Shown here in pieces: positions 432 to 52,378 of a DNA stretch of 64,000 nt. The stretch spans positions 23,342 through 87,341 of the forward strand of contig NW_001799046.1 of the NCBI RefSeq assembly GCF_000165425.1, in the 5' to 3' direction. Origin of the DNA: Paramecium tetraurelia. Its lineage: Eukaryota > Ciliophora > Oligohymenophorea > Peniculida > Parameciidae. Below the pieces are notes generated by a model. It made no database searches. It was not told the DNA's origin and saw only the letters and a program-made list of their open reading frames with translations. The position numbers were made by a program, and so were the translations under genes. Each line of letters begins with the position of its first letter. Positions within the stretch are counted from its first letter, which is position 1.

Positions 432-3400
432 ATGAATATTAAAGTATTGATCCTGGCCTTATTGGTTGCTCTTATAACAAGCTAATAGTATAGTATTTCT
501 TAATGTGATTGTTCCTAATTGTTATCAGAAGATGATTGCTAAAAAAATGATATGATCAAATGTTAATGGGATAGCACAAAGAAGACATGTAAAATCTAGG
601 ATACAACAACTAATCCTGTTATAAACTATGCAAAATATTGTGATAATTTTAAAGAAATGGAATGTCCAAAACAAAAACCATGTAGCAATTGTGGATCTTA
701 CTCTGCATGTGCTTGGGTCGATGGATAGTGTACATTTTTTACAGATTGCACAGCATTTAATAAAACAACAGATTCAGATTGTTAAGCTATTAGTAATAAA
801 TGTATTACTGATGGAACTCATTGTGTTGAAATAGATACTTGTGATAAATATAAAAAACAATAATCTTGTGTAAAAAGCTTATTCGGTAGTTTATGTTATT
901 GGGATACAAAAAATAATAATTGTGTTGATGCTGATACTTGTGATAAACTACCAATTAAATTTTAAACAGATAAAGAATGTAGACATGAAATACAAAGTTG
1001 TACTGCAAAATCAGGAGGTGGATGTGTTGATAGTGGAGTTAATTGTAGTGATTAAAGTTTAGAAATTTAATGTGTTTGGGATTAATCAATGAAAATGGAA
1101 TGTTATTGGAATGGAACATAATGTAAGGATAGAATATGTGATAATGCACCTACTACTTTAAATACTGATGATTCTTGTTAATTATTCAAAACTGATGGAT
1201 CATGTACAACAAAACAAAATGGTGGATGTATTACTAGAACTACTTGTTAGGCTGCTTCAATATAAGCTGCATGTATTAAAAATAGTACAAATGAAGATTG
1301 TTATTGGACTGGAACTACATGTGTGGATAAAATATGTTCAAATGCACCAACTACATTAACAACTAATTCAGCTTGTGCAGCATTTTCAAAAGGATGCATA
1401 ACTAAGTAAGGGGGAGGTTGTGTACTTAATGGAGATTGTTCTGCTGCTAATATTTCAACTGCATGTGTTAAAAATATCAATAATTTTGATTGTATTTGGG
1501 AATTCAACTTGCAAAGAGAAAACATGTGTAAATGCTCCAAAATCTAATACTACTCATGATTAATGTACTTCTTATTTATCAACATGTACAGTTTAATCAG
1601 GAGGAGGATGTCAATAGAGAACATGTGACAATGCTCCTACAACACTGAATACAAATGATGCATGTGAAATATATTTACCTGCAAATAAATGTATAACCAA
1701 AAATGGAGGTGGATGCACAATAAACACCACTTGTTCACTTATATCAATAGAAGTTGCTTGTATCAAAAATTCATTAGGCTTGCCTTGCTTTTGGCATGTT
1801 GCAAGTGGAAGTTGCAAAGACAAAATTTGTGCGAATGCTCCCTCTAGTAATAATAGTCATGAACTTTGTTAATAATTTTTGAATTCTTGTACTGTAAATT
1901 CTACAAATACAGGATGTGTTGAAAAAACATGTGAGAATTCATTAACTTTATCTATTTGTGATAAAGATTTAAACAACAACATATGCATTTGGAAAGCAAG
2001 GTGTTATAAGAGATAATGTGCAATGGCTTCAAGTTCAATAACATCTCATTCTGAGTGTTAAGCTTATTATTCAAGTTGTACATTAAGTAATACTGGAAAA
2101 GGATGTGTTACATTACCTCTGAAATGTGAAGCAATTACAATAGAAGCTGCTTGCAAGATAAAGGCTAATAAATAATCTTGTAGGTTGGACAGGATCTTAA
2201 TGTTTTGATAAAGCCTGCAATACTGCTCCCAAAACTATTTCGACAACTTCAGACTGTCAAGCTTATTTATCTTCATGCGTAGCTAACAATCCAATTACAG
2301 TAAATGGTACCTCAATTATTTAAGGATGCTAAGATTTACCTAAAACTTGCGATTCTAGAAAATCATCTGAAAATTGTAATATTACAAGAGCAGCATTTCC
2401 AATCTGTTTTTGGGATTCTTCATCTAACAAATGCGTTGAAAAATCCTGTACAACTGCAAATTTATCAGGCACACCAGGAGCACTTTCAAAAGGGTAATTC
2501 ACATTTGATAATTGTTAAAGTTACATGAGCACATGCACGACTACTAATGCTCAAGGTAGTTGTACTTAAACATCATATCCTTGCATTTCAAATAATAGTT
2601 AAGATGGATGTATGGTTAAGCCCACAAGTTGTTCATAGTTAGTTTAGTAAAATTGTAAAGATGGATCTAAATCTAATGGTGATTGTTATTGGAATGGATC
2701 TAATTGTGTTGAAAAGATATGTACTAATATAATATTAAAAACACATAACGATTGCTATAATATATTCAATCAATGTACCGTCAATGATGATGGTACAGCA
2801 TGTATACCATTAGCCACTGCTTGTAATTCATATAAAATTTAAGAGAATTGTAAAATTGCATCTACATAAAAGAATTGTTATTGGACAGGAACAGTTTGTA
2901 GAAATGCAATTTGTGATGATACTCCAGATTCTGATCTATTTGATTCAGATGAAGAATGCCTTAAATATCAAACTCAGAATGAAACATGTACAATAATTGC
3001 CAAAGTGGGAGGCTAAGGGTGTGTTCAAAAATAGGCAGTTTGTTCTAATTACAAGACTTCAAGTTAATGCCATAAGACTTTATTAAATTTAAATGCTTAG
3101 GATGATTGTAAATGGATTAATGGAATATGTTATTCCTTGGCAACTTTTGCAACAGGAGCTTGTTCTACGTTTAAAGGAACATAAGATATGTGCAAAGCCT
3201 TATAGATAGGGATGCACAAATGTAGCTAATGCTAGTACTTCAACTGCATGTACATTGGATTGTACTTTAAAAATTGGAAGTGGATTGACATTCTAAGATT
3301 GCTAAAATGTGGATCCAACTTGTTCAGTTAAAAAGGATGGTAGTGGTTGTATTTTAATTTAATCTACATGTGCAGGATATGGAACAACAGATGTAAATTG

Positions 3401-6400
3401 TTATAAATCAAGTGCAACTGGAACACAATCAATATGTCTCATGAATAAAGCCACACCACCAAGTTGTTAATCAGTGAGTTCAGCATCTGATTGTGCACTT
3501 ATAAGTGGATCAGGACTTGATCATGCTAAATGCTAAGCATACAATATTGCATGTACATCTTTAGGTAAAGGAAATGGGTGTTAAGAATTTAAAGCAAATT
3601 GCACTGCTTATACTGGTAATACTGATAATTGCACAGTCTCATAATAAGGACAATGCTTTTTAAATGGTTCTGATTGTGTTCGTTTTTCTAATTGCTTTTC
3701 AATTACTGGAACAAACCTTTCTCAAGAAATCTGTTATTCCTATGGCCCTAATTGCACCATAAATAAATAAAAAACAGCATGTTAATATAAGAGAAATACA
3801 TGTGATTTATACATATCTTAAGAAGAAATGCACAGTATCTGGAACTGACTCTGAAGCAAATTTATGTGTTTGGAGTGGTACAGCATGTCTTACTGTTACA
3901 GATGTTGCTACTCATTGTGCTTACATAACTGGAACCAATCTGACCGATTCATTTTGTGCTAGTTACAATGTTAGTTGCATTGTAAATTAAGAAAAGACGG
4001 CCTGTTAGGAGAAAAAAGCTTCATGTGGTTTATATTCAACTAAAAGTTCATGTACTCTATCATAGGAGGCTGGATCAGCAGGCAAATGTATATGGAATGA
4101 TGGAGGGTGTCGTATCATGACATTACTCTCTACAATTGTTACATCTATTGATAGCGTTGCTCTGAAAAGAGCAACATGTGCATAGGTCAATCCAGCTTTG
4201 GCACCAACAAAAAGTGGAGATAAATGTTTTATAAAATAAGGTTCATGTAGTATGTACAAAGAAGAAAAATATTGTACAACTTCCTTAGCATTAGGTACAG
4301 AAGCAAATTGTATTTGGGATAGTGATAGTTCAAGTTGTTAAGCATTTACATCTGGTTCTTTGTGCAAAAATATAACAGGAACAAATTTATCTGAGAGTTA
4401 TTGCCCTTCAGTTAATCCATTGTGTACAACAAAATAAACGAGAAACGGCTGTTATGAAAAGTAGCCTAATTGTTCAGATTATAAAACATAAGATGATTGC
4501 TAATTATCTTTAGCTTCTGGTAAAGCAGGATATTGTGTATACACTGGTTACGCTTGCGGTAATGTGACAAACCCTTCGACTCATTGTGGTTATATTTAAG
4601 TCTCTTTTCCTACAACAGAGATACTTTGTGCTAGTTATGATACTTCTTGTATTCCTTTATTTGGTGAAAACGGATGTCAAGAGATTAAATCAAATTGTTC
4701 CTCATACTCATCTTAAAAAAACTGTTATAAATCTTTGAATGACGGTTATTGTATTTGGAAAGATAGTAGCTGCAAAGTTGTTAGCGATCCGAACGAATGT
4801 GCTTCTGCATCTTCTTCTGGTTCTAAATTGACTAGTACTTATTGCAATGGATTACATAAAGATTGCTGGGTGACTCCAAGTAAAGGTGGTTGTTATTAGA
4901 TGTTACCTAATTGTGAAAATTACGATCATGTGTCAAAATGTGATAAAACTTTAACTAATGAACTCTGTAGTTGGGGCACAGGTTGTTATAAAAATTCATC
5001 AGCCAGCCAATGCTATGGTTAGTACTTCACTGATATAGCCCCCTCTGGAACAACAGATGCTATTTGCGCTATTTATAATGCTGGCTGCATAGCAGATACC
5101 GATAATTCTCGTTGTTATGAACTGAAAACAAGTTGTTCGTCATACACAGAAATGTAGCAGTGTAAGTATGCAGGAAATTAATAATCTAAAGTTGGATGTG
5201 TCTATAAAGTGACAGGTTGCGTTTAGCTAACTGATCCTGTAGATGAATGTTCATTGATTAGAACAAACCCATTTAGCGATGCTACTTGTGTATCTTTTCA
5301 TAGTGGTTGCACAGTCTCATCAGATTTTTCTGGCTGTCAATAAAGATAAGCAGTTTGTGCCGATTATACAACAAAAGAAACTTGTACATATTCAGCTGCT
5401 GCATCTCCTTTCAATTTATGTCTTTATTTCAATTCAAAATGTGTTGCTGCAAGAGAATTGTTAACTGATTGTGCAGCCATTACTGCAACTTCAGGTTTGA
5501 CTGATTCCGATTGCTCTGGGTATAGCTCTACATGCACATCAAATAAAAATGGGACTGCCTGTTAAGATAAAAAAAGCACATGTTCTGATTACCAAAATTA
5601 GGATTCATGTTCTGTTTCCTCAAGTTCTAAATGCATTTGGAAATCTAGTTGTACTTCTATTAGTGATGTAACTACTGACTGTGTATATGTAGTTGGTACA
5701 AATTTAACTCATGATATTTGTATTTCTTATAACAATGGATGCACAGTCAATAAAGCAGGAACCTCTTGTTAAGAAAAGAAAAACAGTTGTGCGGATTATA
5801 CAAAAAGTGAAAATTGCTCTATTTTTGATGATTCTGGAACACCAAACTACTGTATATGGCATTCGACATGCATCTCTTTCACCAATATTAATACTGATTG
5901 TTATTATATAACTGGTATCAATCTGACCAATGATATATGTGCTTTATATAATCCTAGTTGCATAGTTAATAATTCAGGAACTGCTTGTTAGCTAAATCTA
6001 GGCAGTTGTAAAAGAATATGGTTTATAAGATGGTTGTCCGTAATAATAATGCATATGGGATGCAGCAGAATGCAAATCTATCTCAAATCCTTCAGTTTAA
6101 TGCAGCTTAGTGAATGGAAAGACTGGTCTCAACCTTGACATGTGTAGATAATATCATAGTGAATGTTTTAATCTAAAAGATGGTACTGGATGTTAACATG
6201 CAAAGTCAGATTGTAAGAATTATACAACTTAGAATTAATGTGTTGCATAGCTTAATGGTACTTCCTGTTTATGGCATGAAAATTCTTGCTACAAAATAAC
6301 AGGTGTTAGTTGTTAGGTAATTACAGGGACTAATCTAAATCATAATATATGTTAGTCATATAACAAAGATTGCACTTCAGTAAGTGATGGCAATTCATGT

Positions 6401-9400
6401 TAAGATTATAAGACAACATGCGAATAGTATTTAGGAACAACTGAATCTTGTATTTAATCTGTAAAAGGAAAATGCTACCTCTATAATTCAAACACTTGTA
6501 TTACTATTTTAAATGTTTCTACTGATTGTGCCAAGATTACAGGTGTATCATTAACTTATGAAATATGTTAATCATATAATTTGGGATGCAGTGTTAATAG
6601 AACCAAAACTGCTTGTGTTTAAAAAGCAGCTTAATGCTCTGGATATTCAACTGCTATGAGTGGTTGCTATCAAGCAGGAGAAGGATTATGTATTGCATCC
6701 ACTAGCAATGATTCAGCATGTGTGCCTGCCTCAAGTTCATCTACTTGTGAAAAAGTATTTTTAGGAACAGGCAATTATACTCATGATAATTGTAGTGCAA
6801 TGAAAGCTGGATGTACTGTAAATGGAAGTACAGCATGTATGGCTAGAACTTGTGCAAATGCTACAGGTTCATTACATTTAATCATGATAATTGTTATTCT
6901 TGGCTCAAAACTTGTACAGTAAATTAGACTAATAATGGTTGCGCAATCATGACTGCAAAATGTTCAGATTAATCATCTACTTAATGTCTAAATGCAATAG
7001 AGGGAGTGTGTCTAGTGTTTAATTCTATTTGTATTAGAAAAGGATGTGATACAGCTCCATCAGATGCTTCTCATGATGATGATACAGAATGTTCTAATTA
7101 TTCATAAGCTTGTACAGTTGCAAGAGCAGGTGGATGTCAAGTAAGAACTGCATGTTCATTATATAAATCATCATTATAATGTAAATTAGATATGAATGAT
7201 AAAAAATGTTTCTGGAATCCATCTGTTAAGACATGTGTTGATTTGGCTTGTGCAAATATAGAAGTATCAAATTTATATAATACTCATGCTAAATGCTTTG
7301 CAGTTGATTCAAATTTAGGTTGTACAGTCAGAGCACTTAATAAAGTAGTTGCTCCTGGTTGTATGGCCAGAGGACCATGTAGTTCATATACTATTAAAGA
7401 TTAATGCATAACTAATGATAGTGGAATAGACTGTGTTTGGAATACAAATAGTAGTTTACCTGAACCTGCTTGTTAGGATAAGTCATGTACAACTGCTCCT
7501 AGTTCCACATTAACTCACATTGATTGCTTCAATTATTATAATACATCAACTATCAAATGTACAGTGTAATGCTATTCCAGATGCTAATGGTGGATAACCA
7601 ATTCTAAGAGGATGTTAATAAACTGCAGCCTGTTCAACTTATATTGATAGTGAGTAATGTAAAATAAATGCTGCTGGTGATCCTTGTGGATGGAATGGAA
7701 AAGAATGCAATGATAAATCTTGTTCCACTGCTCCTGCTACATCAGAATATGACGAGGTAATACAAAATGTAGAGCTTATTTGAACAATAAATGTACAGTA
7801 TCATCAGAAGGATAAGGTTGTATAGATATTCCAGAGAGTTGTGAGTTAATGAATTAGAAACAATGTTATTTCAATAGTACTGGACAATCCTGTTATTGGA
7901 CTGGAACAGAGTGTATTACTAAATCTTGTGAAAATGCTCCAATAGAAACAGCTACAGCTGAACAATGCAATAACTATTTATATGGATGTACAATAGATGT
8001 TATAAAATGCAAAATTAAAATCTGCGAAGATTATGTTTTAACAACTGATGAACAATGTAGTTATGCGTTATCTACATGTACTACAAATGGTGTTAATTGT
8101 GTTACCAGAGGAACATGTGTTTAAGCTTAAAATAAAGCTGGATGTGTTGTATCTTCTACTGGATAATCTTGTGAATGGATACCTGATGTCGTAAATTCTC
8201 AAAATGTTGTAACTACTGCAGCATATTGTACAATTAAAACTTGTAATACTGCCCCAATTAGTTTATAAACAGATGCAGATTGTGGAAAGTATTTTACAAA
8301 TTGTACAACAAAAAGTGGAGGTGGGTGTGTTACCTAAATCAAGTTGTTCTGCTGCCTCTGTAAATGCTGCTTGTATAACTGCATTAAACGGTACAATATG
8401 TGTATGGGATAATACATTAAATAAATGTAGAGATAAAGATTGTTAAGATTTTATAGGAACAACTCACACCATTTGTTAAACTTAAAGATAAGAATGTACT
8501 GCTGGACCAAATGGTAGATGTGCTAGAGTATAAAGTTGTGAATCAACTACTATTAGAGAAGCTTGTATTGAAGGCACAAATGGACCATGTTTATGGATTG
8601 AAAAGTTTGTCAATAGTGATGGTTCAAAAGGAGCTTGTTTTGCATATACATCATGCAAGAGTTTAGCTTGGAATAGTGATGAATCTTGTAAATTGATAAG
8701 CAATAAATGTACAACTAATGGAACTAATTGCATTGGAATTACTACATGTACTGAGACAAATATTGATGGTGGATGTGTTACAGGGTATGATGGATCTTGC
8801 ATTTAATCTGTACCTGCTTTGAATTCTTCTGATCCTAAGATTTGTAAACCATTTAAATCATGTGCAGATGCCTATTATGCAACTCATAAAGATTGTTAAA
8901 TTGCTAATAAAAAATGTACAACAGATGGAACTACGGGTTGCATTCCTTTAGGAGCATGTTCAACATATAAATCTTAACTGCAGGATGTTAGGTAAATGAT
9001 AAAGGATCTGTAGTTTAATCTGGTGTTATAACTTCAACAGGTGTTTGTATTTGGGATTTGAGTACAAGTGGTTGTAGAGATTAAATTTGCTCTGATTTGA
9101 ATGGTGTTACTCATTCAATTTGTAATTCTTAATTATCAACATGTACTTCAGATGGTAATAAATGTTTACTGAAAACAAATTGTTCTAGTTATTCTACCTA
9201 AATTATTTGTTCAACAGCTGTTGGAAATGATGGTCTTTGCTTTTGGGAGGTTGGTTCTACTACAAATAATAATACAGCAAAATGTAGATTACTTTCTTGT
9301 GCTGATATTCAAAATGGAACATCCATCAGTGTTTGTTAAGCTGCTTTACCATCTTGTATTTCAAATGGAACTGTTTGTATCCCAAAGGCTAAATGTTCAA

Positions 9401-9930
9401 CTTACACAACTAAAACAGCATGCAATTTTGGTGGATTAGATGGAATTTGTGTATTTACATAATCAACTTCTGCATAGGCTGTAGCTGATAGTGGAACTTG
9501 CACTTTGATGAATTCATGTTCATCTGCAAATAATGATTAAAATGCTTGTGTAGCTGCATAAGATAGATGTTCATGGAGTCCAGCTAGTTCTACAATTACA
9601 AGTATATGTACTAATCATACATGTGGTACATATAATTAAGTTAGTGGAACTTGTTCAAGATTCTTTAATTGGGATAAATAATCATAATAAATATGTTCTA
9701 TGATTAATGGAATATGTACAGCAACTGATCCATCAACGTTAAAATAAAGTGATTGTTTTAAATTTTCAGGATACACATATACATGGAATAGCTCAACAAA
9801 CAAATGTTAAGTTTGTACTAAAAAAGATTAGCCAAATGGTCCTATCAATAACACAATCAATGATACAAATAACACTAATACGGCTTAAGGGTTATTATTA
9901 ACATTCATCTTAGGCTATTTGATGATTTGA
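432..9930 (+). CDS. Surface antigen (immobilization antigen) gene 1, frame-disrupted
   Basis: This encodes a giant cysteine-rich GPI-anchored coat protein of about 3160 codons. It opens with a signal peptide (MNIKVLILALLVALITSQ). The body is made of cysteine modules of about 70-75 residues with recurring C-x-W pairs, matching the Paramecium surface antigen repeat family. It ends in an Asn/Thr-rich stretch and a hydrophobic tail (GLLLTFILGYLMI) typical of a GPI signal, then TGA. TAA/TAG codons read as Gln. Aligned to copies 2 and 3, it carries extra bases near 1501, 2182, 3198, 3827, 6012, 6870 (+2), 7568, 7756 (+2), 8333 and 8979 (+2), every one an insertion. As written it cannot be translated through. 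It may be a pseudogene or contain assembly errors. I do not know the serotype. Confidence 0.9.
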
Positions 9931-10750: not shown

Positions 10751-11040
10751 GTAGATGATGATAAATTTAAAGAAAATTCTTAATGTCTGATAATATAGGA
10801 ATTTGTTCACTAAACTCTTATCGATCAAGACACTCAACTTCTTATCTTCTTGATCGTCCTCTTGGTGAATCTTTCTATAAAACTACTCGATGAACTCTGT
10901 TTTTGTAAGTTGTAATTAGCCTGCTATTAATTAATTCAGGTTTTCTAAATGGCTGGTTCATGCTTAAACTAGATGATTTCTATCCAGCTATAATAATAAT
11001 AATGATCAATAAAATGGTGCTTATAATCTAAAAATAAAGA
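10688..11040 (-). pseudogene. Possible 3' end of an unidentified gene
   Basis: Reading leftward with the ciliate code gives a frame ending at TGA 10688-10690 and rich in Glu, Asp, Lys and Gln (for example KTEFIEQFYRKIHQEDDQED). It can be extended by removing a 25-nt GT...AG segment just upstream. No start codon or family could be recognised, and the plus strand also shows a short open stretch, so the call is weak. It could be a gene fragment carried in with the segment unique to spacer 1. Confidence 0.25.
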
Positions 11041-15870: not shown

Positions 15871-15907
15871 CCTAAAATAATTATAAATCATTATAATATG
15901 TGTAGAA

Positions 15908-17814: not shown

Positions 17815-20800
17815 ATGAATATTAAAGTATTGATCCTGGCCTTATTGGTTGCTCTTATAACAAGCTAATAGTATAGTATTTCTTAATGTGATTGTTCCTA
17901 ATTGTTATCAGAAGATGATTGCTAAAAAAATGATATCGATCAAATGTTAATGGGATAGCACAAAGAAGACATGTAAAAACTAGGATACAACAACTAATCC
18001 AGTTGTAAACTATGCAAAATATTGTGATAATTTTAAAGAAATGGAATGTCCAAAACAAAAACCATGTAGCAATTGTGGATCTTACTCTGCATGTGCTTGG
18101 GGTCGATGGATAGTGTACATTTTTTACAGATTGCACAGCATTTAATAAAACAACAGATTCAGATTGTTAAGCTATTAGTAATAAATGTATTACTGATGGA
18201 ACTCATTGTGTTGAAATTGATACTTGTGATAAATATAAAAAACAATAATCTTGTGTAAAAAGCTTATTAGATAATTTTTGTTATTGGGATACAAAAAATA
18301 ATAATTGTGTTGATGCTGATACTTGTGATAAATTACCAATTAAATTTTAAACAGATAAAGAATGTAGACATGAAATACAAAGTTGTACTGCAAAATCAGG
18401 AGGTGGATGTATTGATAGCGGAATTAATTGTAGTGATTAAATTTTAGAAATTTAATGTTTTTGGGATTAATCAATGAAAATGGAATGTTATTGGAATGGA
18501 ACGTAATGTAAAGATAGGATATGTGATAATGCACCTACCACTTTAAATAATGATGATGCTTGTAAATTATTCAAAACTGATGGATCATGTACAACAAAAC
18601 TAAATGGTGGATGTATTACTAGAACTACTTGTTAAGCTGCTTCAATATAAGCTGCATGTATTAAAAATAGTACAAATGAAAGATTGTTATTGGACTGGAA
18701 CTGCATGTGTGGATAAAATATGTTCAAATGCACCAACTACATTAACAACTAATTCAGCTTGCGAAACTTTTTCAAAAGGATGCATAACAAAGTAAGGGGG
18801 AGGATGTGTTCTAAATGGAGATTGCTCAGCTGCTAATATTTCAACTGCATGTGTTAAAAATATCAATAATTTTGATTGTATTTGGGATTCAACTTGCAAA
18901 GAGAAAACATGTGTAAATGCTCCAAAATCAAATACTACTCATGATTAATGTACTTCTTATTTATCAACATGTACAGTTTAATAAGGAGGAGGATGTCAAT
19001 AGAGAACGTGTGACAATGCTCCTATAACATTGAATACAAATGATGCATGTGAAACTTATTTACCTGCAAATAAATGTATAACCAAAAATGGAGGTGGATG
19101 TACAATAAACACCACTTGTTCACTCATCTCAATAGATGTTGCTTGTATCAAAAATTCATTAGGCTAATCTTGCTTTTGGCATGTTGCAAGTGGAAGTTGC
19201 AAAGACAAAATTTGTGTAAATGCTCCCTCTAGTAATAATAGTCATGAACTTTGTTAATAATTTTTGAATTCTTGCACTGTGAATTCTACAAATACAGGAT
19301 GTGTAGAAAAAACTTGTGAGAATTCATTAACTTTATCAACTTGTGATAAAGACTTAAACAACAACATGTGCATTTGGAAAGCAAGATGTTATAAGAAATA
19401 ATGCGCAATGGCTTCAAGTTCAATAACATCTCATTCTGAGTGTTAAACTTATTATTCAAGTTGTACATTAAGCAACACTGGAAAAGGATGTGTTACATTA
19501 CCTCTCAAATGTGAAGCAATTACAATAGAAGCTGCTTGCAAGATAAAGGCTAATAAATAATCTTGTGGTTGGACAGGATCTTAATGTATTGAAAAAGCTT
19601 GCAATACTGCGCCAAAAACTATTTAAACAACTTTAGACTGTCAAACTTACTTATCTTCTTGTGTTGCTAATAATCCAGTTACTGTAAATGGTAGCTCAAC
19701 TATTTAAGGATGCTAAGATTTACCTAAAACTTGCGATTCTAGAAAATCATCTGAAAATTGTAATATTACAAGAGCAGCATTTCCAACCTGTTTTTGGGAT
19801 TCTTCATCTAACAAATGTGTTGAAGAAATCCTGTACAACTGCAAATTTATCAGGCACACCAGGAGCACTTTCAAAAGGGTAATTCACATTTGATAATTGT
19901 TAAAGTTATATGAGCACATGCACAACTACTAATGCTCAAGGTAGTTGTACTCAAACATCATATCCTTGCATTTCAAATAATATTTAAGATGGATGTATGG
20001 TTAAGCCCACAAGTTGTTCATAGTTAGTTCAGTAAAATTGTAAAGATGGATCTAAATCTATTGGAGATTGTTATTGGAATGGATCTAATTGTGTTGAAAA
20101 GATATGTACTAATATAATATTAAAAACACATAACGATTGCTATAATATATTCAATCAATGTACCGTCAATGATGATGGCACAGCATGTATACCATTAGCC
20201 ACTGCTTGTAATTCATATAAAATTTAAGAGAATTGTAAAATTTCATCTACATAGAAGAATTGTTATTGGACAGGAATAGTTTGTAGAAATGCAATTTGTG
20301 ATGATACTCCAGATTCTGATCTATTTGATTCAGATGAAGAATGTCTTAAATATCAAACTCAAAATGAAACTTGTACAATAATTGCAAAAGCGGGAGGTCA
20401 AGGGTGTGTTTAAAAATAGCCAGTTTGTTCGAATTACAAGACATCTAATTAATGCCATAAAACTTTATCAAATTTAAATGCTTAAGATGATTGTAAATGG
20501 ATTAATGGAATATGTTATTCATTGTCAACTTTTGCAACAGGAGCTTGTTCTACGTTTAAAGGAACATAAGATATGTGCAAAGCTTATAGATTGGGATGTA
20601 CAAACGTAGCTAATGCTAGTAACTTCAACTGCATGTACATTAGATTGTACTTTAAAAATTGGAAGTGGATTGACATTCTAAGATTGTTAAAATATGGATC
20701 CAACTTGTTCGGTTAAAAAGGATGGTAGTGGTTGTATTGTAATTTAATCTACATGTGCAGGATATGGAACAACAGATGTAAATTGTTATAAATCAAATGC

Positions 20801-23800: not shown

Positions 23801-26800
23801 CATGCGAATAGTATGTAGGAACAACTGAATCTTGTATTTAATCTGTAAATGGAAAATGCTACCTCTATAATTCAAATACTTGCATTACTATTTTAAATGT
23901 TTCTACCGATTGTGCTAAGATTACAGGTGTATCATTAACTTATGAAATATGTTAATCATATAATTTGGGATGCAGTGTTAATAGAGCCAAAACTGCTTGT
24001 GTTTAAAAAGCAGCTTAATGTTCTGGATATTCAACTGCTATGAGTGGTTGCTATCAAGCAGGAGAAGGATTATGTATTGCATCCAGTAGTAATGATTCAG
24101 CATGTGTGCCTGCCTCAAGTTCCTCTACCTGTGAAAACGTATTTTTAGGAACAGGCAATTATACTCATGATAATTGTAGTACAATGAAAACTGGATGTAC
24201 TGTAAATGGAAGTACAGGATGTATGGCTAGAACTTGTGCAAATGCCACAGGTTTTACATTTAATCATGATAATTGTTATTCTTGGTTGAAAACTTGTACA
24301 GTAAATTAGACTAATAATGGTTGCACTATCATGACTGCCAAATGTTCAGATTAATCATCTACTTAATGTCTAAATGCAATAGAAGGAGTGTGTCTAGTGT
24401 TTAATTCTATTTGTATTAGAAAAGGATGTGATACAGCTCCATCAGATGCTTCTCATGATGATGATACAGAATGTTCTAATTATTCATAGGCTTGTACAGT
24501 TGCAAGAGCAGGTGGATGTCAAGTAAGAACTGCATGTTCATTATATAAATCATCATTATAATGTAAATTAGATATGAATGATAAAAAATGTTTCTGGAAT
24601 CCTTCTGTTAAGACATGTGTTGATTTGGCTTGTGCAAATATAGAGGTTTCAAATTTATATAATACTCATGCTAAATGCTTTGCAGTTGATTCAAATTTAG
24701 GTTGTACAGTCAGAGCACTTAATAAAGTAGTTGCTCCTGGTTGCATGGCAAGAGGACCATGTAGTTCATATACTATTAAAGATTAATGCATAACTAATGC
24801 TAGTGGAATAGATTGTGCTTGGAATACAAGTAGTAGTTTACCTGAACCTGCTTGCTAGGATAAGTCATGTACAACTGCTCCTAGCTCCACATTAACTCAC
24901 AATGATTGCTTCAATTATTATAATACATCAACTATTAAATGTACTGTGTATGCTATTCCAGATGCTAATGGTGGATAACCAATTCTAAGAGGATGTTAAT
25001 AAACTGCAGCCTGTTCAACTTATATTGATAGTGAGTAATGTAAAATAAATGCTGCTGGTGATCCTTGTGGATGGAATGGAAAAGAATGCAATGATAAATC
25101 TTGTTCCACTGCTCCTGCTACATCAGAATATGACGATAATACAAAATGTAGAGCTTATTTGAACAATCAATGCACAGTATCATCAGAAGGATAAGGTTGT
25201 ATAGATATTCCAGAGAGTTGTGAGTCAATGAATTAGAAACAATGTTATTTCAATAGTACTGGACAATCCTGTTATTGGACTGGAACAGAGTGTATTACTA
25301 AATCTTGTGAAAATGCTCCAATAGAAACAGCTACAGCTGAACAATGCAATAACTATTTATATGGATGTACAATAGATGTTATAAAATGCAAAATTAAAAT
25401 CTGCGAAGATTATGTTTTAACAACTGATGAACAATGTAGTTATGCGTTATCTACATGTACTACAAATGGTGTTAATTGTGTTACCAGAGGAACATGTGTT
25501 TAAGCTTAAAATAAAGCTGGATGTGTTGTATCTTCTACTGGATAATCTTGTGAATGGATACCTGATGTCGTAAATTCTCAAAATGTTGTAACTACTGCAG
25601 CATATTGTACAATTAAAACTTGTAATACTGCCCCAATTAGTTTATAGACTGATGTAGATTGTGGAAAGTATTTTACAAATTGTACAACTAAAAGTGGAGG
25701 AGGTTGTGTTACTAAATCAAGTTGTTCTGCTGCCTCTGTAAATGCTGCTTGTATAACTGCATTAAACGGTACAATATGTGTATGGGATAATACATTAAAT
25801 AAATGTAGAGATAAAGATTGTTAAGATTTTATAGGAACAACTCACACCATTTGTTAAACTTAAAGATAAGGATGTACTGCTGGACCTAATGGTAGATGTG
25901 CTAGAGTTTAAAGTTGTGAATTAACTACTATTAGAGAAGCTTGTATTGAAGGTACAAATGGACCATGTTTATGGATTGAGAAGTTTGTCAATAATGATGG
26001 GTCAAAAGGAGCTTGTTTTGCATATACATCATGCAAGAGTTTAGCTTGGAATAGTGATGAATCTTGTAAATTAATAAGTAATAAATGTACAACTAATGGA
26101 ACTAATTGTATTGGAATTACTACATGTACTGAGACAAATATTGATGGTGGATGTGTTACAGGGTATGATGGATCTTGCATTTAATCTGTTCCTGCTTTGA
26201 ATTCTTCTGATCCTAAGATTTGTAAACCATTTAAATCATGTGCAGATGCCTTTTATGCAACTCATAAAGATTGTTAAATTGCTAATAAAAAATGTACAAC
26301 AGATGGAACTACTGGTTGCATTCCTTTAGGTGCATGTTCAACTTATAAATCTTAACCAGGATGTTAGATAAATGATAAAGGATATGTAGTTGAATCTGGT
26401 GTTATAACTTCAACAGGTGTTTGTACTTGGGATATGAGTACAAGTGTTTGTAGAGATTAAATTTGCTCTGATTTGAATGGTGTTACTGATTCAATTTGTA
26501 ATTCTTAATTATCAACATGTACTTCAGATGGTACTAAATGTTTACTTAAAACAAATTGTTCTAGTTATTATACCTAAGTTATTTGTTCATCAGCTGTTGG
26601 AAATGATGGACTTTGTTTTTGGGAAGTTGGTTCTGCTTCAAATAATAATACAGCCAAATGTAGATTACTCTCTTGTGCTGATATTCAAAATGGAACATCC
26701 ATTAGTATTTGTTAAGCTGCTTTACCATCATGCATTTCAAATGGAACTGTTTGTATCCCAAAGGCCAAATGTTCAACTTACACAACTAAAACAGCATGCA

Positions 26801-27309
26801 ATTTTGGTGGATTAGATGGAATTTGTGTATTTACATAATCAACTTCTGCATAGGCTGTGCCTGATAGTGGAACTTGTTCTTTAATGAATTCATGTTCATC
26901 TCGCAAATAATGATTAAAGTGCTTGTGTAGCTGCATAAGATAGATGTTCATGGAGTCCTGCTAGTTCTAGTATTACAAGTATATGTACAAGTCATACATG
27001 TGGTACATATAATTAAGTGAGTGGAACTTGTTCAAGATTCTTTAATTGGGATAACATAATCATAATAGATATGTTCTATGATTAATGGAATATGCAGAGC
27101 CACTATACACATCAACATTAATATAAAGTGATGTTCTTAAACTTTCAGGATACACATATACATGGAATAGTTAATCAAACAAATGCTAAGTTTGTACTAA
27201 AAAAGATTAGCCAAATGGTCCTATCAATAATACAATCAATTATACAAATAACTCTAATACAGCTTAAGGGTTATTATTAACATTCATCTTAGGCTATTTG
27301 ATGATTTGA
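17815..27309 (+). CDS. Surface antigen gene 2, frame-disrupted
   Basis: It has the same architecture as gene 1: signal peptide, about forty cysteine modules, Asn/Thr-rich stem and GPI-type hydrophobic tail, ending at TGA 27307-27309. Single extra bases relative to the other copies lie near 17937, 18101, 18680, 19826, 20621, 22796, 26902, 27055 and 27107, all insertions. They sum to nine, so the overall length remains a multiple of three and the 3' end is again in the starting frame. A conserved module Cys is Arg (CGT at about 22945). Another is lost near 27133, where TGT became GTT. The middle (about 21100-23500) differs strongly from genes 1 and 3, while both ends are nearly identical. Whether it is functional cannot be decided from this sequence. 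Confidence 0.9.
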
Positions 27310-31025: not shown

Positions 31026-31455
31026 ATCAAGATTAGAGTAAATGATGAAAGAGGAAGAATGAAGGAATGGGATATTTAGATAATATGAGTTATAAAGAAG
31101 GAGAGAATACTTAAAATTAGTATAACGAGAAGTCAAAAGCAATAGTGGATGGTTACTATATATGTTTATTGTATTTTTATCAATCTACCATTGATTAGTT
31201 ATGAATAATTGATGATAGTGCATCTAGATTGGGTATTACAATTAAGTAACTACGTAACTGTCAGCTAAGAGTCTACTCATTATGTTGTCTTGACAGCAAG
31301 AATGTTCATTAATTTAATTAATGATGAGGGTTGATTTCAATATTTAATTATGCTTAAGGCTATTGGAAAAATAACTATGTATTCCAATAAGACAAAAATA
31401 TAACATTCTTGAATTATTCAAAAATAAATAATAAAATTATAATGAATTACTTTTT
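31026..31455 (+). promoter_or_regulatory. Conserved 5' flank of surface-antigen gene 3
   Basis: Third copy of the roughly 430-bp flank. The tight block is 31227-31330 and the palindrome 31307-31323. The CTGTCA/TGACAG inverted repeat is intact, as in gene 1. A promoter role is inferred. Confidence 0.6.
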
Positions 31456-34400
31456 ATGAATATTAAAGTATTGATCCTGGCCTTATTGGTTGCTCTTATA
31501 ACAAGCTAATAGTATAGTATTTCTTAATGTGATTGTTCCTAATTGTTATCAGAAGATGATTGCTCAAAAAATGATATGATCAAATGTTAATGGGATAGCA
31601 CAAAGAAGACATGTAAAAATTAGGATACAACAACTAATCCAGTTATAAACTATGCAAAATATTGTGATAATTTTAAAGAAATGGAATGTCCAAAACAAAA
31701 ACCATGTAGCAATTGTGGATCTTACTCTGCATGTGCTTGGGTCGATGGATAGTGTACATTTTTTACAGATTGCACAGTATTTAATAAAACAACAGATTCA
31801 GATTGTTAAGCTATTAGTAATAAATGTATTACTGATGGAACTCATTGTGTTGAAATTGATACTTGTGATAAATATAAAAAACAATAATCTTGTGTAAAAA
31901 ACTTATAAGATAATTTATGTTATTGGGATACTAAAAATAATAATTGTGTTGATGCTGATACTTGTGATAAATTACCAATTAAATTTCAAACAGATAAAGA
32001 ATGTAGACATGAAATACAAAGTTGTACTGCAAAATCAGGAGGTGGATGTATTGATAGTGGAATTAGTTGTACTGATTAAAATTTAGAAATTTAATGTGTT
32101 TGGGATTAATCAATGAAAATGGAATGTTATTGGAATGGAACATAATGTAAAGATAGAATATGTGATAATGCACCTACTACTTTAAATACTGATGATTCTT
32201 GTAAATTATTCAAAACTGATGGATCATGTACAACAAAACAAAATGGTGGATGTATCACTAGAACTACTTGTTAAGCTGCTACAATATAAGCTGCATGTAT
32301 TAAAAATAGTACAAATGAAGATTGTTATTGGACTGGAACTGCATGTGTGGATAAAATATGCTCAAATGCACCAACTACATTAACAACTAATTCAGCTTGT
32401 GTAGCATTTTCAAAAGCATGCATAACAAAGTAAGGAGGAGGTTGTGTACTTAATGGAGATTGCTCAACTGCCAATATTTCAACTGCATGTGTTAAAAATC
32501 ATCAATAAATTTTGATTGTATTTGGGAATTCAACTTGCAAAGAAAAAACATGTATAAATGCTCCAAAATCTAATACTACTCATGATTAATGTACTTCTTA
32601 TTTATCTTCTTGTACTGTGTAATCAGGAGGGGGATGTCAATAGAGAACATGTGACAATGCTCCTACAACATTGAATACAAATGATGCATGTGAAAAATAT
32701 TTACCTGCAAATAAATGTATAACCAAAAATGGAGGTGGATGTACAATAAACACCACTTGTTCACTCATCTCAATAGAAGTTGCTTGTATCAAAAATTCAT
32801 TTGGCTAACCTTGTTTTTGGCATGCTGCAAGTGGAAGTTGCAAAGACAAAATTTGTGCAAATGCTCCATCTAGTAATAATAATCACGAACTTTGTTAATC
32901 TTTTTTGAATACATGTACTGTGAATTCTACAAATACAGGATGTGTTGAAAAAACATGTGAGAATTCATTAACTTTATCAACTTGTGATAAAGATTTAAAC
33001 AACAATATATGCATCTGGAAAGCAAGGTGTTATATGAAATCATGCGCAATGGCTTCAAATTCAATAACATCTCATTCTGAATGTCAAACTTATTATTCAA
33101 GTTGTACATTAAGCAACACTGGAAAAGGATGTGTAACAATACCTCTGAAATGTGAAGCAATTACAATAGAAGCTGCTTGCAAAATAAAAGCTAATAAATA
33201 ATCTTGTGGTTGGACAGGATCTTAATGTCTTGATAAAGCTTGCAATACAGCTCCTAAAACTATTTAAACAACTTCAGACTGTCAAACTTACTTATCATCT
33301 TGTGTGGCTAATAATCCAGTTACAGTAAATGGAACCTCAACTATTTAAGGATGCCAAGATTTACCTAAGACTTGCGATGCTAGAAAATCATCTGAAAATT
33401 GTAATATCACAAGAGCAGCATTTCCCACCTGTTTTTGGGATTCTTCATCTAACAAATGCGTTGAAAAATCTTGTACAACTGCAAATTTATCAGGTTCACC
33501 AGGAGCACTTTCAAAAGGGTAATTCACATTTGATAATTGTTAAAGTTACATGAGCACATGCACAACTACTAATGCTCAAGGTAGTTGTACTTAAACATCA
33601 TATCCTTGCATTTCAAATAATAGTTAAGATGGATGTATGGTTAAGCCCACAAGTTGTTCATAGTTAGTTTAGTAAAATTGTAAAGATGGATCTAAATCTA
33701 ATGGTGATTGTTATTGGAATGGATCTAATTGTGTTGAAAAGATATGTTCTAATATTGTATCAACAACACATAACGATTGCTATAATATATTCAATTAATG
33801 TACCGTCAATGATGATGGCACAGCATGTATACCATTAGCTTCTGCTTGCACTTCATATAAAATTTAAGAGAATTGTAAAATAGCATCTACATAAAAGAAT
33901 TGTTATTGGACAGGAACAGTTTGTAGAAATGCAATTTGCGATGACACTCCAGATTCTGATCTATTTGATTCAGATGAAGAATGTCTTAATATCAAACTCA
34001 GAATGAAACATGTACAATAATTGCAAAAAGTGGGAGCTTAAGGGTGTGTACAAAAATAACCGGTTTGTTCAAATTACAAGACTTCCAGTTAATGTCACAA
34101 GACTTTATCAAATTTAAATGCTTAAGATGATTGTAAATGGATTAATGGAATATGTTATTCATTATCAACTTTTGCAACAGGACCTTGCTCTACATTTAAA
34201 GGAACACAAGATATATGCAAAGCTTATAGATAGGGATGTACAAATGTAGCTAATGCTAGTACTTCAACTGCATGTACTTTGGATTGTACTTTAAAAATTG
34301 GAAGTGGATTGACATTCTAAGATTGCTAAAATGTGGATCCAACTTGTTCGGTTAAAAAGGATGGTAGTGGTTGTATTGTAATTTAATCTACTTGTACAGG

Positions 34401-37400
34401 ATATGGGACAACAGCTGCAAATTGTTATAAATCAAATTAAACTGGATCACAATCAAATTGTGTCATGAATAAAGCCACACCACCAAGTTGTTAATCAGTG
34501 AGTTCAGCATCTGATTGTGCACTTATAAGTGGATCAGGACTTGATCATGCCAAATGCTAAGCATTTAATATTGCTTGTACATCTTTAGGTAACGGAAGTG
34601 GGTGTTAAGAGTTTAAAGCAAATTGCACTTCTTATACTGGTAATACTGATAATTGCACAGTCTCTTAATAAGGACTATGCTTTTTAAGTGGTTTTGATTG
34701 TATTCGTTTTTATAATTGCTTTTCAATTACTGGAACAAACCTTACTCATGAAATATGTATTGGCTATAGCACTGATTGCACAGTAAATAAATAAAAAACA
34801 GCATGTTAAGATATGAAAGCCACATGTGATTTATACCCATCCCAAGAATAATGCACAATATCTGCAGCTGAGTAAAAGGCAAGTTAATGTGCTTGGAGTG
34901 GAACAGCATGTCTTGCTGTTACAGTAGCTGCTACTCATTGTTCATACATAACTGGAACTTACTTGACCGATTCATTTTGTGCTACTTATAATGATAATTG
35001 CATAGTAAATTATAGAAAGAACGCTTGTTAGGAGAAAAAAGCTACATGTGATTTATACCCATCTCATGATTAATGTACAATATCTGCAGCTGAATCCAAA
35101 GAAAGTTAATGTATTTGGAGTGGAACAGCTTGCCTTGCAGTTACAGTAGTTGCTACTCATTGTTCCTTAGTAACTGGAACAAATCTGACCGATTCATTTT
35201 GTGCTACCTACAATGATAATTGCACTGTAAATTACGAAAAGACTGCTTGTTAGGAGAAAAAAGCTTAATGTGGTTTATATTTAACTAAAAGCTCATGTAC
35301 TCTATCATAGGCAGCTGATACAGCAGGAAAATGTATATGGAATAATGAAAGGTGTCGTATTATGACATCACTTGCTACAATTGGTAAATCTGTTATAGGG
35401 GAAAAAATGAAAAATGCAAGATGTATAGAGATCAATCCAGCTTTGGCAGTTACAGTGTATGGAGATGAATGCTTTGTAAAATAAACTTCATGTAGTATGT
35501 ACACAATAGAAAAGTATTGTTCACATTCCTCAGCATCAGGTGCAGCAGCTAATTGTATTTGGGATGGTTCACATTGTTAAGCATTTACATCTAATTCTCT
35601 GTGCAAATATATTTAATTATGGGGTATGGTAGTAGATGAGACTTATTGTCCTTCAGTTAATTCATAATGTATAGCAAATCTAGCCTTAGACGGCTGTTAT
35701 GGAAAGAAGGCTAATTGTTCAGATTATGATACAAAAATTGAATGCTCATAATCTTTTGCTCCTGGAACAGCAGGATTTTGTATATGGACAGGTTCAATTT
35801 GCACTTATGTGAAAGACCCTTCGGTTGATTGTGCTAAAATTAACACCTCTATTAATACGACAGAGATACTTTGTGCTAGCTATCATGCTTTTTGTATTCC
35901 TTACTTAGGTGAAAAGGGATGTCAATAGATTCAATCAAATTGTTCCTCATACATGAATATTAAAAACTGTTATAAATCTTTGAATGACGGTTATTGTGCT
36001 TGGGTAAATAACAATTGTATACATATAACAAGTCCGAGTCAATGTGCTTCAGCTTCTGGTTCTAATTTGACTAGTACTTATTGCAATGGATTACATAAAG
36101 ATTGCTGGGTGAATGCAGCAAAAGATAGTTGCTATTAGATGAAACAAACTTGTGCAGAATACGATAGGGGATAATCAATTTGTATTAGATCATTAATCGA
36201 TGGAAATGCTGGACTCTGTGCTTGGAACTCTGTTTCTGGGTGTTATTAAACAACATCTGCCAGTTAATGCGATACCTAGGATTTTGACGGTGTAAACCCC
36301 TCTTCTGGAACAACAGATGCCTATTGCGCTAATTTTAATGCTGGCTGCATTGCAAAATTAAACAAATTTGGTTGTTAAAAATTATTAACAAGTTGTTCAG
36401 ACTACACATAAGATACATGTAATTATGCTAGAAATTCAGGAGCTAAAGATAGATGTATTTGGATGGATTCAAAATGCAGTAAGTTAACAGTTCCTGCTAC
36501 TGAATGTTATAATATTGATAGTCCAACAGATAATTAACCGTTTAGCGATAATTATTGTGCATCTTATCATAGTGGTTGCACAGTCGGAAACGAATTTAAT
36601 ATCTGTCTAGAAAGAAAAGCAGTTTGTGAAGATTATACAACACAATTTTTTTGCTTTTATTCAGCTGCCTCACCTCCTTTCAATGTATGTCTTTATATAA
36701 ATTCTATTTGTGTTACTGCAAGAGATTTGTTAACTGATTGTGCTGCCATTACTGCATCTTCAGGTTTAACTGATTCCGATTGCTCTGGGTATAGCTCTAC
36801 CTGCATATCAAATAAAGCTGGGACTGCTTGTTAAGATAAAAAAGACTAATGTTCTGATTACCAAAATTAGGATTAATGTACTGTTTCCTCGAGTTCTAAA
36901 TGCATTTGGAAATCTAGTTGTATTTCTGTTAGTGATGCAACTACTGACTGTGCATATGTAGTTGGTACAGATTTAACTCATGATATTTGTGCGTCTTATA
37001 ACAATGGATGCACAGTAAATAAAACAGGAACCTCTTGTTAAGAGATGAAAAATACTTGTGCAGATTATACAAAAAGTGAAAATTGCACTAGGTTCCAAAA
37101 TTTTGGGTCGGCAAGTTACTGTTTATGGCATTCTTCATGCATCTCTGTCACTAATCTTACAACGGATTGTGCTTACATAACTGGTATAAATCTGACCAAA
37201 GATATATGTGCTTTATATCATAATAATTGCACAGTTAACTACTCAGGAACTGCTTGTTAGGAAAAGTAATCCAGTTGTTCAGATTATACTTTGAAAGAAA
37301 ATTGTTTAGCAGGTAATTGCATATGGGATGAAGCATTAAAATGCATTTCTATATCAGATCCTTCTACTTAATGCAGCTTAGTGAATGGAAAGACAGGACT

Positions 37401-40400
37401 CAACCTTGACATGTGTAAATAATGTCATAGTAAATGTATTAATCTAAAGGATGGTACTGCATGTTAACACGTCTAGACCGATTGTACCAAATATAAAACT
37501 TAGAATTCATGTGTTTCATTGGCTAATGGTATTTCCTGTTTATGGTATGAAGATTCCTGCTACCAAATAGCATATACTTCTTGTAGTTCCATCATTTAGA
37601 CTAATCTAAATCATAATATATGTTATTCATATAACAAAGGCTGCACTTCAGTAAGTGGATGGCACTTCATGCTAAGGTTATATGTCAACATGCGAATAGT
37701 ATTCAGGAACGACTTAATCTTGTACTTAATCTGTAAATGGAAAATGCTACCTCTATAATTCAAACAAATGTATTACTATTTTAAATACTTCTACCGATTG
37801 TGCTAAGATTACAGGTGTATCATTAACTTATGAAATTTGTTAATCATATAATTTGGGATGTAGTGTTAATAGAGCTAAGACTGCTTGTGTTTAAAAAGCA
37901 GCATAATGTTCTGGATATTCAATTGCTATGGCTGGTTGCTATCAAGCAGGAGAAGGATTATGTTTTGCATCTACTAGTAATGATTCAGCATGTGTGCCTG
38001 CTTCAAGTGCATCTACCTGTGAAAAAGTATTTTTAGGAACAGGCAATTATACTCATGATAATTGTAGTGCAATCAAAACTGGATGTACTGTAAATGGAAG
38101 TACAGCATGTATGGCTAGAACTTGTGCAAATGCCACAGGTTTTACATTTAATCATGATAATTGTTATTCTTGGTTGAAAACTTGTACAGTAAATTAGACT
38201 AATAATGGTTGCACTATCATGACTGCCAAATGTTCAGATTAATCATCTACTTAATGTCTAAATGCAATAGAGGGAGTGTGTTTAGTGTTTAATTCTATTT
38301 GTATTAGAAAAGGATGTGATACAGCTCCATCAGATGCTTCTCATGATGATGATACAGAATGTTCTAATTATTCATAGGCTTGTACAGTTGCAAGAGCAGG
38401 TGGATGTCAAGTAAGAACTGCTTGTTCATTATATAAATCATCTCTATAATGTAAATTAGATATGAATGATAAAAAATGTTTCTGGAATCCATCTGTTAAG
38501 ACATGTGTTGATTTGGCTTGTGCAAATATAGAAGTTTCAAATTTATATAATACTCATGCTAAATGCTTTGCAGTTGATTCAAATCTAGGTTGTACAGTAA
38601 GAGCACTTAATAAAGTAGTTGCTCCTGGTTGCATGGCAAGAGGACCATGTAGTTCATATACTATTAAAGATTAATGCATAACTAATGCCATTGGAATAGA
38701 TATGTGCTTGGAATACAAATAGTAGTTTACCTGAACCTGCTTGCTAGGACAAGTCATGTACAACTGCTCCTAGTTCCACATTAACTCACAATGATTGGCT
38801 TCAATTATTATAATACACCAAGTAATCAAAATGTACAGTACATGCTATTCCAGATGCTAATGGTGGATAACCAATTTTAAGAGGATGTTAATAAACTGGC
38901 TGGCTTGTTCAACTTATATTGATAGTGAGTAATGCAAAATAAATGATGTTGGAGATCCTTGTGGATGGAATGGAAAAGAATGTAATGATAAATCTTGTTC
39001 CACTGCTCCTGCAACATCAGAATATGATGATGATACAAAATGTAAAGCCTATTTCAACAATAAATGTACAGTTTCATCAGATGGATAAGGATGTATAGAT
39101 ATTCCAGAGAGTTGTGAGTTAATGAATTAGAAACAATGTTATTACAATAGAACTGCACAACCCTGTTATGTTATTGGACTGGAACAGAGTGTATAACTAA
39201 ATCTTGTGAAAATGCTCCAATAGAAACAGCAACAGCTGAATAATGTAATAACTATTTATATGGATGTACAAAAGATATTATAAAATGCAAAATTAAAATC
39301 TGTGAAGATTATATTTTAACAACAGATGAACAATGTAGTTATGCGTTATCTACATGTACAACAAATGGTATTAATTGTGTAACAAGAGGAACATGTGTTT
39401 AAGCTTAAAACAAAGCTGGATGTGTTGTATCTTCTACTGGATAATCTTGTGAATGGATACCAGATGTCGTAGATTCTCAAAATGTTGTAACTACTGCAGC
39501 ATATTGTACAATTAAAACTTGTAATACTGCCCCAATTAGTTTATAAACAGATGTAGATTGTGCAAAGTATTTTACAAATTGTACAACTAAAAGTGGAGGA
39601 GGTTGTGTTGCTAAATCAAGTTGTTCTGCTGCTTCTGTAAATGCTGCTTGTATAACTGCATTAAATGGTACAATATGTGCATGGGATTATACATTAAATA
39701 AGTGTAGAGATAAAGACTGTTAAGATTTTATAGGAACAACTCACACCATTTGTTAAACTTAAAGATAAGGATGTACTGCTGGACCAAATGGTAGATGTGC
39801 TAGAGTTTAAAGTTGTGAATTAACTACTATTAGAGAAGCTTGTATTGAAGGCACAAATGGGCCTTGTTTATGGATTGAGAAGTTTGTCAATAATGATGGG
39901 TCAAAAGGAGCTTGTTTTGCATATACATCATGCAAGAGTTTAGCTTGGAATAGTGATGAATCTTGTAAATTAATAAGTAATAAATGTACAACTAATGGAA
40001 CTAATTGTATTGGAATTACTACATGTACTGAGACAAATATTGATGGTGGATGTGTTACAGGGTATGATGGATCTTGCATTTAATCTGTTCCTGCTTTGAA
40101 TTCATCTGATCCTAAGATTTGTAAACCATTTAAATCATGTGCAGATGCCTTTTATGCAACTCATAAAGATTGTTAAATTGCTAATAAAAAATGTACAACA
40201 GATGGAACTACGGGTTGCATTCCTTTAGGTGCATGTTCAACATACAAATCTTAACCAGGATGTTAGATAAATGATAAAGGATCTGTAGTTGAATCTGGTG
40301 TTATAACTTCAACAGGTGTTTGTACATGGGATTTGAGTACAAGTTCATGTAGAGATTAAATTTGCACTGATTTGAATGGTGTTACTCATGGAATTTGTAA

Positions 40401-41205
40401 TTCTTAATTATCAACATGTACTTCAAATGGTACTAAATGTTTACTTAAAACAAATTGTTCTAGTTATTCAACCTAAATTATTTGTTCAACAGCTGTTGGA
40501 AATGATGGACTTTGCTTTTGGGAGGTTGGTTCTGCTTCAAATAATAATACAGCCAAATGTAGATTACTTTCTTGTGCTGATATTCAAAATGGAACATCTA
40601 TTAGTGTTTGTTAAGCTGCTTTACCATCTTGCATTTCAAATGGAACTATTTGTATCCCAAAGGCTAAATGTTCAACTTACACAACTAAAACAGCATGCAA
40701 TTTTGGTGGATTAGATGGAATTTGTGTATTTACATAATCAACTTCTGCATAGGCTGTGCCTGATAGTGGAACTTGTACTTTAATGAATTCATGTTCATCT
40801 GCAAATAATGATTAAAATGCTTGTGTAGCTGCATAAGATAGATGTTCATGGAGTGCAGCTAGTTCTAGTATTACAAGTATATGTACAAATCATACATGTG
40901 GTACATATAATTAAGTGAGTGGAACTTGTTCAAGATTCTTTAATTGGGATAAATAATCATAATAAATATGTTCTATGATTAATGGAATATGTAGAGCCAC
41001 TGATCCATCAACATTAATATAAAGTGATTGTTTTAAACTTTCAGGATATACATATACATGGAATAGTTCAACAAACAAATGCTAAGTTTGTACTAAAAAA
41101 GATCAGCCAAATGGTCCTATCAATAATACAATCAATGATACAAATAATACGAATACAGCTTAAGGGTTATTATTAACATTCATCTTAGGCTATTTGATGA
41201 TTTGA
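31456..41205 (+). CDS. Surface antigen gene 3, frame-disrupted, with an extra module
   Basis: Same protein type as genes 1 and 2, about 250 bp longer, mostly because a 222-bp cysteine module is duplicated at 34819-35262. Differences in length from the other copies: +1 near 32494, 32507 and 32526 (summing to +3, so the frame recovers but a module segment is scrambled), -1 near 33989, +1 near 34027, +1 near 37658, 38701 and 38814, +2 near 38825 and 38898, and +5 near 39168 (a repeated GTTAT). All but one are insertions, and the net change leaves the 3' end in the starting frame. Signal peptide and GPI-type tail (TGA 41203-41205) are intact. Between the few breaks the frame is open for kilobases. 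Confidence 0.9.
34819..35262 (+). repeat. Tandem 222-bp module duplication inside antigen gene 3
   Basis: 34819-35040 and 35041-35262 are two adjacent, clearly similar 222-bp units, each 74 codons and one cysteine period long. Each starts at Ala-Thr-Cys-Asp-Leu-Tyr and ends before the next such motif or its equivalent. Genes 1 and 2 have a single unit here. The exact 74-codon length keeps the frame and the cysteine register. Confidence 0.85.
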
Positions 41206-42390: not shown

Positions 42391-42433
42391 AATATTAATT
42401 AAATAAATGTAAATATAAGATGGAAACAATTTG

Positions 42434-52354: not shown

Positions 52355-52378
52355 TTTATATATATATATACTAAAATA

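What the first reader, a model, noticed from the sequence alone, without database searches (positions are those of the whole stretch)
432..41205. Surface-antigen copies broken almost only by tiny insertions, while adjacent single-copy genes are intact
Aligning the three complete copies to one another, I find about ten length changes per 9.5 kb. Of about thirty events, all but one add 1, 2 or 5 bases. The genes from 42 to 59 kb read through without any such defect once normal introns are removed. Pseudogene decay should give deletions too. An insertion bias confined to recently duplicated sequence is what single-molecule long reads leave behind when short-read polishing cannot map uniquely. A biological alternative is silent antigen genes kept as a sequence reservoir.
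Basis: partly seen in the sequence, partly recalled or inferred. Interest (0 to 1): 0.72.

Follow-up and report, generated by a model that had tools for sequence, protein, structure and literature searches.

The report
Assembly errors in Paramecium antigen genes
The broken reading frames in this row of Paramecium surface-antigen genes are almost certainly sequencing and assembly errors, because two genes of the row that were assembled twice do not carry the same breaks in both versions; the genes otherwise look ordinary.

Summary
The window is Paramecium DNA with three complete surface-antigen genes (about 9.5 kb each) and a truncated fourth. The three carry 29 frame-breaking insertions (1, 2 or 5 bases) and one coding deletion outside a hypervariable patch. 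Contig C116 overlaps the ends of C93 (the window's contig) and C32, so two genes of the array are present twice. These twins differ by 5 mismatches but 23 gap openings; paralogues show 3449 and 332. Of 18 frame-breaking insertions in the overlaps, 17 are absent from the twin, while in-frame differences are shared. A, B and C themselves have no twin; for them the argument is by likeness and by selection: five full copies have no in-frame TGA in 15,758 codons (neutral expectation about 45), and dN/dS is 0.2-0.4 at both gene ends. Open points: a site hit in three loci and one nonsense codon in copy D.

The parts
432..9930 (+). Copy A, Paramecium surface-antigen gene, 10 frame-breaking insertions, no in-frame nonsense codon
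17815..27300 (+). Copy B, same family, 9 frame-breaking insertions (ends approximate), no in-frame nonsense codon
31456..41205 (+). Copy C, same family, 10 frame-breaking insertions and one deletion; three single-base insertions close together near 32.5 kb sum to three, and the frame 31294-37833 stays open (2179 aa, 26 Paramecium_SA stretches)
59020..64000 (-). Copy D, 3' part only (the contig ends here; low end approximate), 19 frame-breaking insertions in 5 kb; its 5' part appears to continue on contig C116 (F2), which overlaps it by 1.7 kb
34775..35279 (+). Tandem 222-base (74-codon) units; copy C has one unit more than the other copies, in frame
42000..58600 (.). Block of single-copy genes between the two antigen groups; the two genes that could be tested show no frame breaks against paralogous loci

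Best explanation
The small insertions are consensus errors of an assembly made from error-prone single-molecule long reads, left in a recently duplicated gene family. SHOWN: in the two loci assembled twice they do not reproduce; they are almost all insertions; in two of eight sequences they are patchy; they are rare where the nearest other copy is below about 85% identity over 1-2 kb. INFERRED: that A, B and C, which have no twin, suffer from the same errors; that long reads were misassigned among copies or left unpolished; and that the underlying genes are intact members of a Paramecium surface-antigen array (E, A, B, C, D, G) under purifying selection at both ends.
For: Overlaps from contig end to contig end: C116:1-6559 = C32:6601-37 (99.73%, 2 mismatches, 14 gap openings) and C116:15220-16941 = C93:87306-85578 (99.31%, 3 mismatches, 9 gap openings); 5:23 in the twins against 3449:332 between copy B and four paralogues, Fisher P = 6e-20 (alignments over 1500 columns, and the twin search alone had a 97% identity filter). 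17 of 18 frame-breaking insertions in the overlaps are absent from the twin, while length differences of 3, 21 and 8+4 bases are shared. In-frame TGA: 0 of 15,758 codons in A, B, C, E, G; neutral expectation 9.4+6.8+7.7+14.6+6.6 = 45. dN/dS 0.19-0.40 in the 5' third and 0.26-0.36 in the 3' part. Insertion rate 0.35/kb in the variable middle (nearest copy 81-86%) against 1.84 and 1.71/kb at the ends (nearest copy 89-96%), P = 2e-6. Distant antigen genes: 1 insertion in about 25 kb, with C10 and C179b showing single frames of 2543 and 2775 aa. Single-copy control 0 in about 8.7 kb.
Against: No reads were examined and the platform is unknown. None of the 29 insertions of A, B and C was itself tested by a twin. 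Insertions are not enriched in the most identical 150-base stretches, and E, whose 5' third is only 88.6% like its nearest copy, has the most insertions there (14 in 3.5 kb). The site near 1501 is hit in three of six loci (A, C, E); with it, coincident pairs number 5 against 1.7 expected (P = 0.03). Copy D has one in-frame TGA outside the contig tip. Private substitutions of A hardly favour third codon positions (100/89/94 against 92/105/86 expected). The twins could in principle be near-identical duplicates rather than one locus.
Confidence: 0.93

Rival explanations
1. True pseudogenes: unexpressed isogenes decaying by an insertion-biased mutational process.
For: Non-expressed isogenes and a G pseudogene are described in Paramecium (PMC9788069, passages). 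Copy D has one nonsense codon outside its tip. Private substitutions of A are near neutral in codon position.
Against: 0 in-frame TGA in 15,758 codons of five full copies where about 45 are expected; constraint at both gene ends; 17 of 18 insertions not reproduced in the overlapping contig.
Confidence: 0.04
2. Silent antigen genes kept as a conversion reservoir, with frame breaks tolerated because segments are copied into an expressed gene.
For: The family is a duplicated array with a variable middle and similar ends.
Against: As for pseudogenes; I looked for no conversion tracts and no expressed partner.
Confidence: 0.02
3. Programmed ribosomal frameshifting or other recoding at these sites.
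For: One site is hit in three of six loci.
Against: Most sites are private to one locus; without that site coincidences are at chance (2 pairs against 1.6, P = 0.49).
Confidence: 0.005
4. A narrower form of the best explanation: short-read polishing failed because short reads could not be placed uniquely. (Its odds are inside those of the best explanation, not added to them.)
For: Errors are concentrated in multi-copy genes. In a human assembly most residual variants, mainly SNPs (52,191 of 79,269 SNPs; 4,629 of 17,439 indels), lay in segmental duplications, possibly from missing duplications or imperfect short-read polishing (PMC7265644, passage).
Against: At 85 insertion sites the nearest copy differs at a median of 7 positions per 150 bases, as in the background; only 6 of 85 have no difference within 100 bases.
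Confidence: 0.3

Closest known systems
Paramecium surface antigens (immobilisation antigens, Pfam PF01508), isogene arrays of the kind described in PMC9788069
   Same: 26 Paramecium_SA stretches in the open part of copy C, variable middle with more conserved ends, duplicates on one contig, telomere-like repeats at the contig end next to copy E
   Different: Nothing established. Which serotype family and which species were not tested; I looked for no reference antigen sequences
Residual indel errors of single-molecule long-read assemblies in duplicated sequence
   Same: Insertion-dominated, not reproduced between overlapping contigs, rare where no close copy exists
   Different: The threshold lies near 85% identity at kilobase scale rather than at near-identity, which suggests the long-read stage and not only short-read polishing (inference)

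Membership tests
Paramecium surface antigen (PF01508) | Paramecium_SA domains along the protein | tested here: met
   26 stretches, E = 5e-235 in the open frame of copy C, the only copy scanned
Paramecium surface antigen (PF01508) | Ciliate code with TAA/TAG = Gln | tested here: met
   0 frames of 150 aa or more under table 1, 148 under table 6, both strands of the window
Paramecium surface antigen (PF01508) | GPI anchoring and mutually exclusive expression | not testable with these tools
   needs protein and RNA data
Pseudogene | Lesions present in independent readings of the same locus | tested here: not met
   17 of 18 frame-breaking insertions absent from the overlapping contig, for the two loci read twice
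Pseudogene | Nonsense substitutions accumulate with frameshifts | tested here: not met
   0 of 15,758 codons in five full copies against about 45 expected; copy D has 1 outside its tip
Pseudogene | Loss of codon-level constraint | tested here: not met
   dN/dS 0.19-0.40 at both ends, 0.42-1.18 in the middle; codon positions of private substitutions nearly neutral in A
Long-read assembly indel error | Differences between overlapping contigs of one locus dominated by insertions | tested here: met
   5 mismatches, 23 gap openings
Long-read assembly indel error | Absent from accurate reads | not testable with these tools
   no read data
Programmed frameshifting | Conserved shift positions among homologues | tested here: not met
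   2 coincident pairs against 1.6 expected; 5 against 1.7 when the site near 1501, added by eye, is included

The most novel reading that the evidence does not exclude
A minority of the breaks are real, for example the extra base near 1501 (hit in three of six loci) and the nonsense codon in copy D, so that the array holds some genuinely silenced isogenes beside intact ones, with assembly errors layered on top.
Probability: 0.12. Interest if true: 0.35.

Novelty: not a real feature. Interest (0 to 1): 0.15.

Why it matters
Left as it is, the array would be annotated as a row of antigen pseudogenes, and counts of intact and silent surface-antigen genes in this genome would be wrong. The contig-overlap test needs no reads and could be applied to other long-read assemblies of duplicated antigen families before a pseudogene reservoir is claimed.

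Tried and rejected
Local uniqueness at read scale: nearest-copy mismatches at 85 insertion sites (seven sequences, F1 and the column-1106 sites left out) against 2334-2337 background positions in 100, 150 and 250 base windows gave P = 0.42, 0.25, 0.14. Rejected as the main predictor, although a relation appears in 1- and 2-kb windows.

Homopolymer origin: 42 of 73 single-base insertions match a neighbouring base against 44% expected (P = 0.02); a weak effect only.

Codon phase by simple majority failed after one alignment column and was replaced by an open-phase path over columns. That path was fitted to minimise TGA with a penalty of 6 per switch and needed three switches: near column 1164 (after the three-locus site at column 1106), in the hypervariable patch (5191), and at the shared terminal stop (9925). 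The zero-TGA count therefore leans towards openness near those switches.

Clustering: close spacing of insertions exceeds chance in F2 and D (P = 0 of 2000 and 0.037), not in A, B, C, E, G (P = 0.06-1.0).

A control over the whole single-copy block was not possible: contig C46 ends and the other matches cover parts. P0003 and P0005 found no match in the fetched loci. In the raw blastn comparison many small paired gaps appear at 69-78% identity; I did not judge them for frame. Species and assembly were not identified; passages give 66-73 Mb for P. aurelia macronuclear genomes other than P. sonneborni (PMC8354472) and 27.6 Mb for P. calkinsi (PMC13059789); G000 has 69 Mb. No read data were available.

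Full report
What is there. The window reads in ciliate code: no open frame of 150 aa or more under table 1, 148 under table 6. The genome is 69 Mb in 231 contigs and the window is the right-hand part of contig C93. The repeated genes encode Paramecium surface antigen (Pfam PF01508, E = 5e-235 for the open part of copy C). Three full copies lie at 432-9930, about 17,815-27,300 and 31,456-41,205, and a truncated one on the minus strand from about 59,020 to the end of the contig. DNA searches of the genome (lower bounds, by the tool's own note) found further close relatives: E on C93 left of the window, F1 and F2 on C116, G on C32; seven more distant genes at 72-76% identity over the 5' query and 68-75% over the 3' query; and weaker short matches that I did not fetch. 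All eight close sequences and the seven distant ones were in hand.

The observation. In the alignment of the eight close sequences, A, B and C carry 10, 9 and 10 insertions of at most 5 bases that are not multiples of three, and one coding deletion outside a hypervariable patch. The other sequences have D 19, E 20, F1 4, F2 10, G 10, in all 92 records; F1 and G share one, so 91 are distinct. The column-1106 site in A, C and E (1501 in the window) was added by eye; the automatic rule had called it a deletion in B and G.

The decisive test. C116 overlaps C32 over 6570 columns at 99.73% and C93 over 1730 columns at 99.31%, in both cases from contig end to contig end, while other copies are at most 92% identical overall. 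About 35 bases at the tips of C93 and C32 do not match and were left aside, with three length differences that lie in those tips. The simplest reading is that F1 and G are one gene and F2 and D are one gene, each assembled twice. The twins differ by 5 mismatches and 23 gap openings; copy B against A, C, E and G gives 3449 and 332 (Fisher P = 6e-20). Of 18 frame-breaking insertions found in the overlaps, 17 are absent from the twin and one is shared; the shared one lies in the hypervariable patch, where the alignment is uncertain. Also not shared are one missing base in D and a two-base difference in the patch. The differences of 3, 21 and 8+4 bases are shared by both twins. So the frame breaks behave as reading errors and the in-frame differences as evolution. 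A, B and C have no twin; the step to them is inference from the same spectrum and the same family.

Selection. Labelling alignment columns by the phase open in all copies, the five full copies contain 3155, 3161, 3175, 3152 and 3115 readable codons and no TGA; placing each copy's private substitutions at random gives 9.4, 6.8, 7.7, 14.6 and 6.6. The phase path was fitted and needed three switches, so this count is favourable near them. D has two TGA, one in the mismatching contig tip and one inside; F1 and F2 have none. Pairwise dN/dS is 0.19-0.40 in the 5' third, 0.26-0.36 in the 3' part and 0.42-1.18 in the middle, in line with the conserved ends and high-dN/dS interior reported for these antigens (PMC9788069: first of six parts, passages). 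For private substitutions alone an excess at third codon positions is clear in E and G, slight in B and C and nearly absent in A.

Where the errors fall. Rates are 1.84, 0.35 and 1.71 per kb in the 5' third, middle and 3' part, where the nearest other copy is 89-96%, 81-86% and 91-96% identical. The insertion rule is less sure in the variable middle, but long open frames there agree. By 2-kb windows the rate is 0.12/kb below 85% identity, 0.92 at 85-90% and 1.4-1.9 above. E breaks the simple relation: its 5' third, only 88.6% like its nearest copy, has 14 insertions. In the C51 group (82-88% alike) I find 21 insertions in about 31 kb, eight of them within 272 columns of one gene; in C10, C179a and C179b (at most 78% alike overall) one in about 25 kb (rule slightly different). 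Frame-breaking deletions number 4 in the C51 group and 8 in the other three genes, 6 of these 8 in columns 8751-8799 at the 3' end and one of 14 bases in C179a. E and F2 have clean runs of 4.8 and 4.1 kb that a uniform process does not give (0 of 5000 and P = 0.0006); for the other six P is 0.08-0.78. At 150-base scale there is no relation to identity. Short reads should be placeable at most of these sites, so I place the failure at the long-read stage; this is inference. Papers, seen as passages only: PMC7265644 (residual variants, mainly SNPs, in segmental duplications) and PMC4835549 (nanopore data have more deletions and mismatches than insertions, unlike the low mismatch rate of PacBio data). 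That PacBio continuous reads are insertion-rich is recalled.

Layout. Chaining the overlaps gives: telomere-like repeats (left end of C93), E(-), A(+), B(+), C(+), the single-copy block, D/F2(-), G/F1(-), then the rest of C32. This is inferred. The array then holds at least six antigen genes of a known family.

Verdict. The frame breaks are very probably not a real feature. Open points are the site near 1501, hit in A, C and E (5 coincident pairs against 1.7 expected, P = 0.03; without it 2 against 1.6), and the one nonsense codon in D.

Noticed in passing
C93 right end (window 64000), C116 both ends, C32 left end: Three contigs overlap end to end inside antigen genes and appear to be one chromosome that the assembler failed to join.
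   Followed up: yes
C93:1-60 (L004): Irregular C/A-rich telomere-like repeats at the left contig end, beside antigen copy E.
   Followed up: no
window 34775-35279: Tandem 222-base (74-codon) units; copy C has one more than the other copies, in frame.
   Followed up: partly
window about 1501; same alignment column in copies C and E: One site carries an extra base in three of six loci, more coincidence than chance predicts.
   Followed up: partly
L014 (C51:188001-198000): Another antigen gene with eight single-base insertions within 272 alignment columns, which looks like an unpolished patch.
   Followed up: partly
window 56538-58070: Open frame with a von Willebrand A match just under the Pfam cut-off (23.6 against 23.8 bits).
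   Followed up: no
L011 (C32:13017-13166) and L012 (C51:30501-30566): Runs of 150 and 66 N; assembly gaps or masked stretches, not resolved.
   Followed up: no
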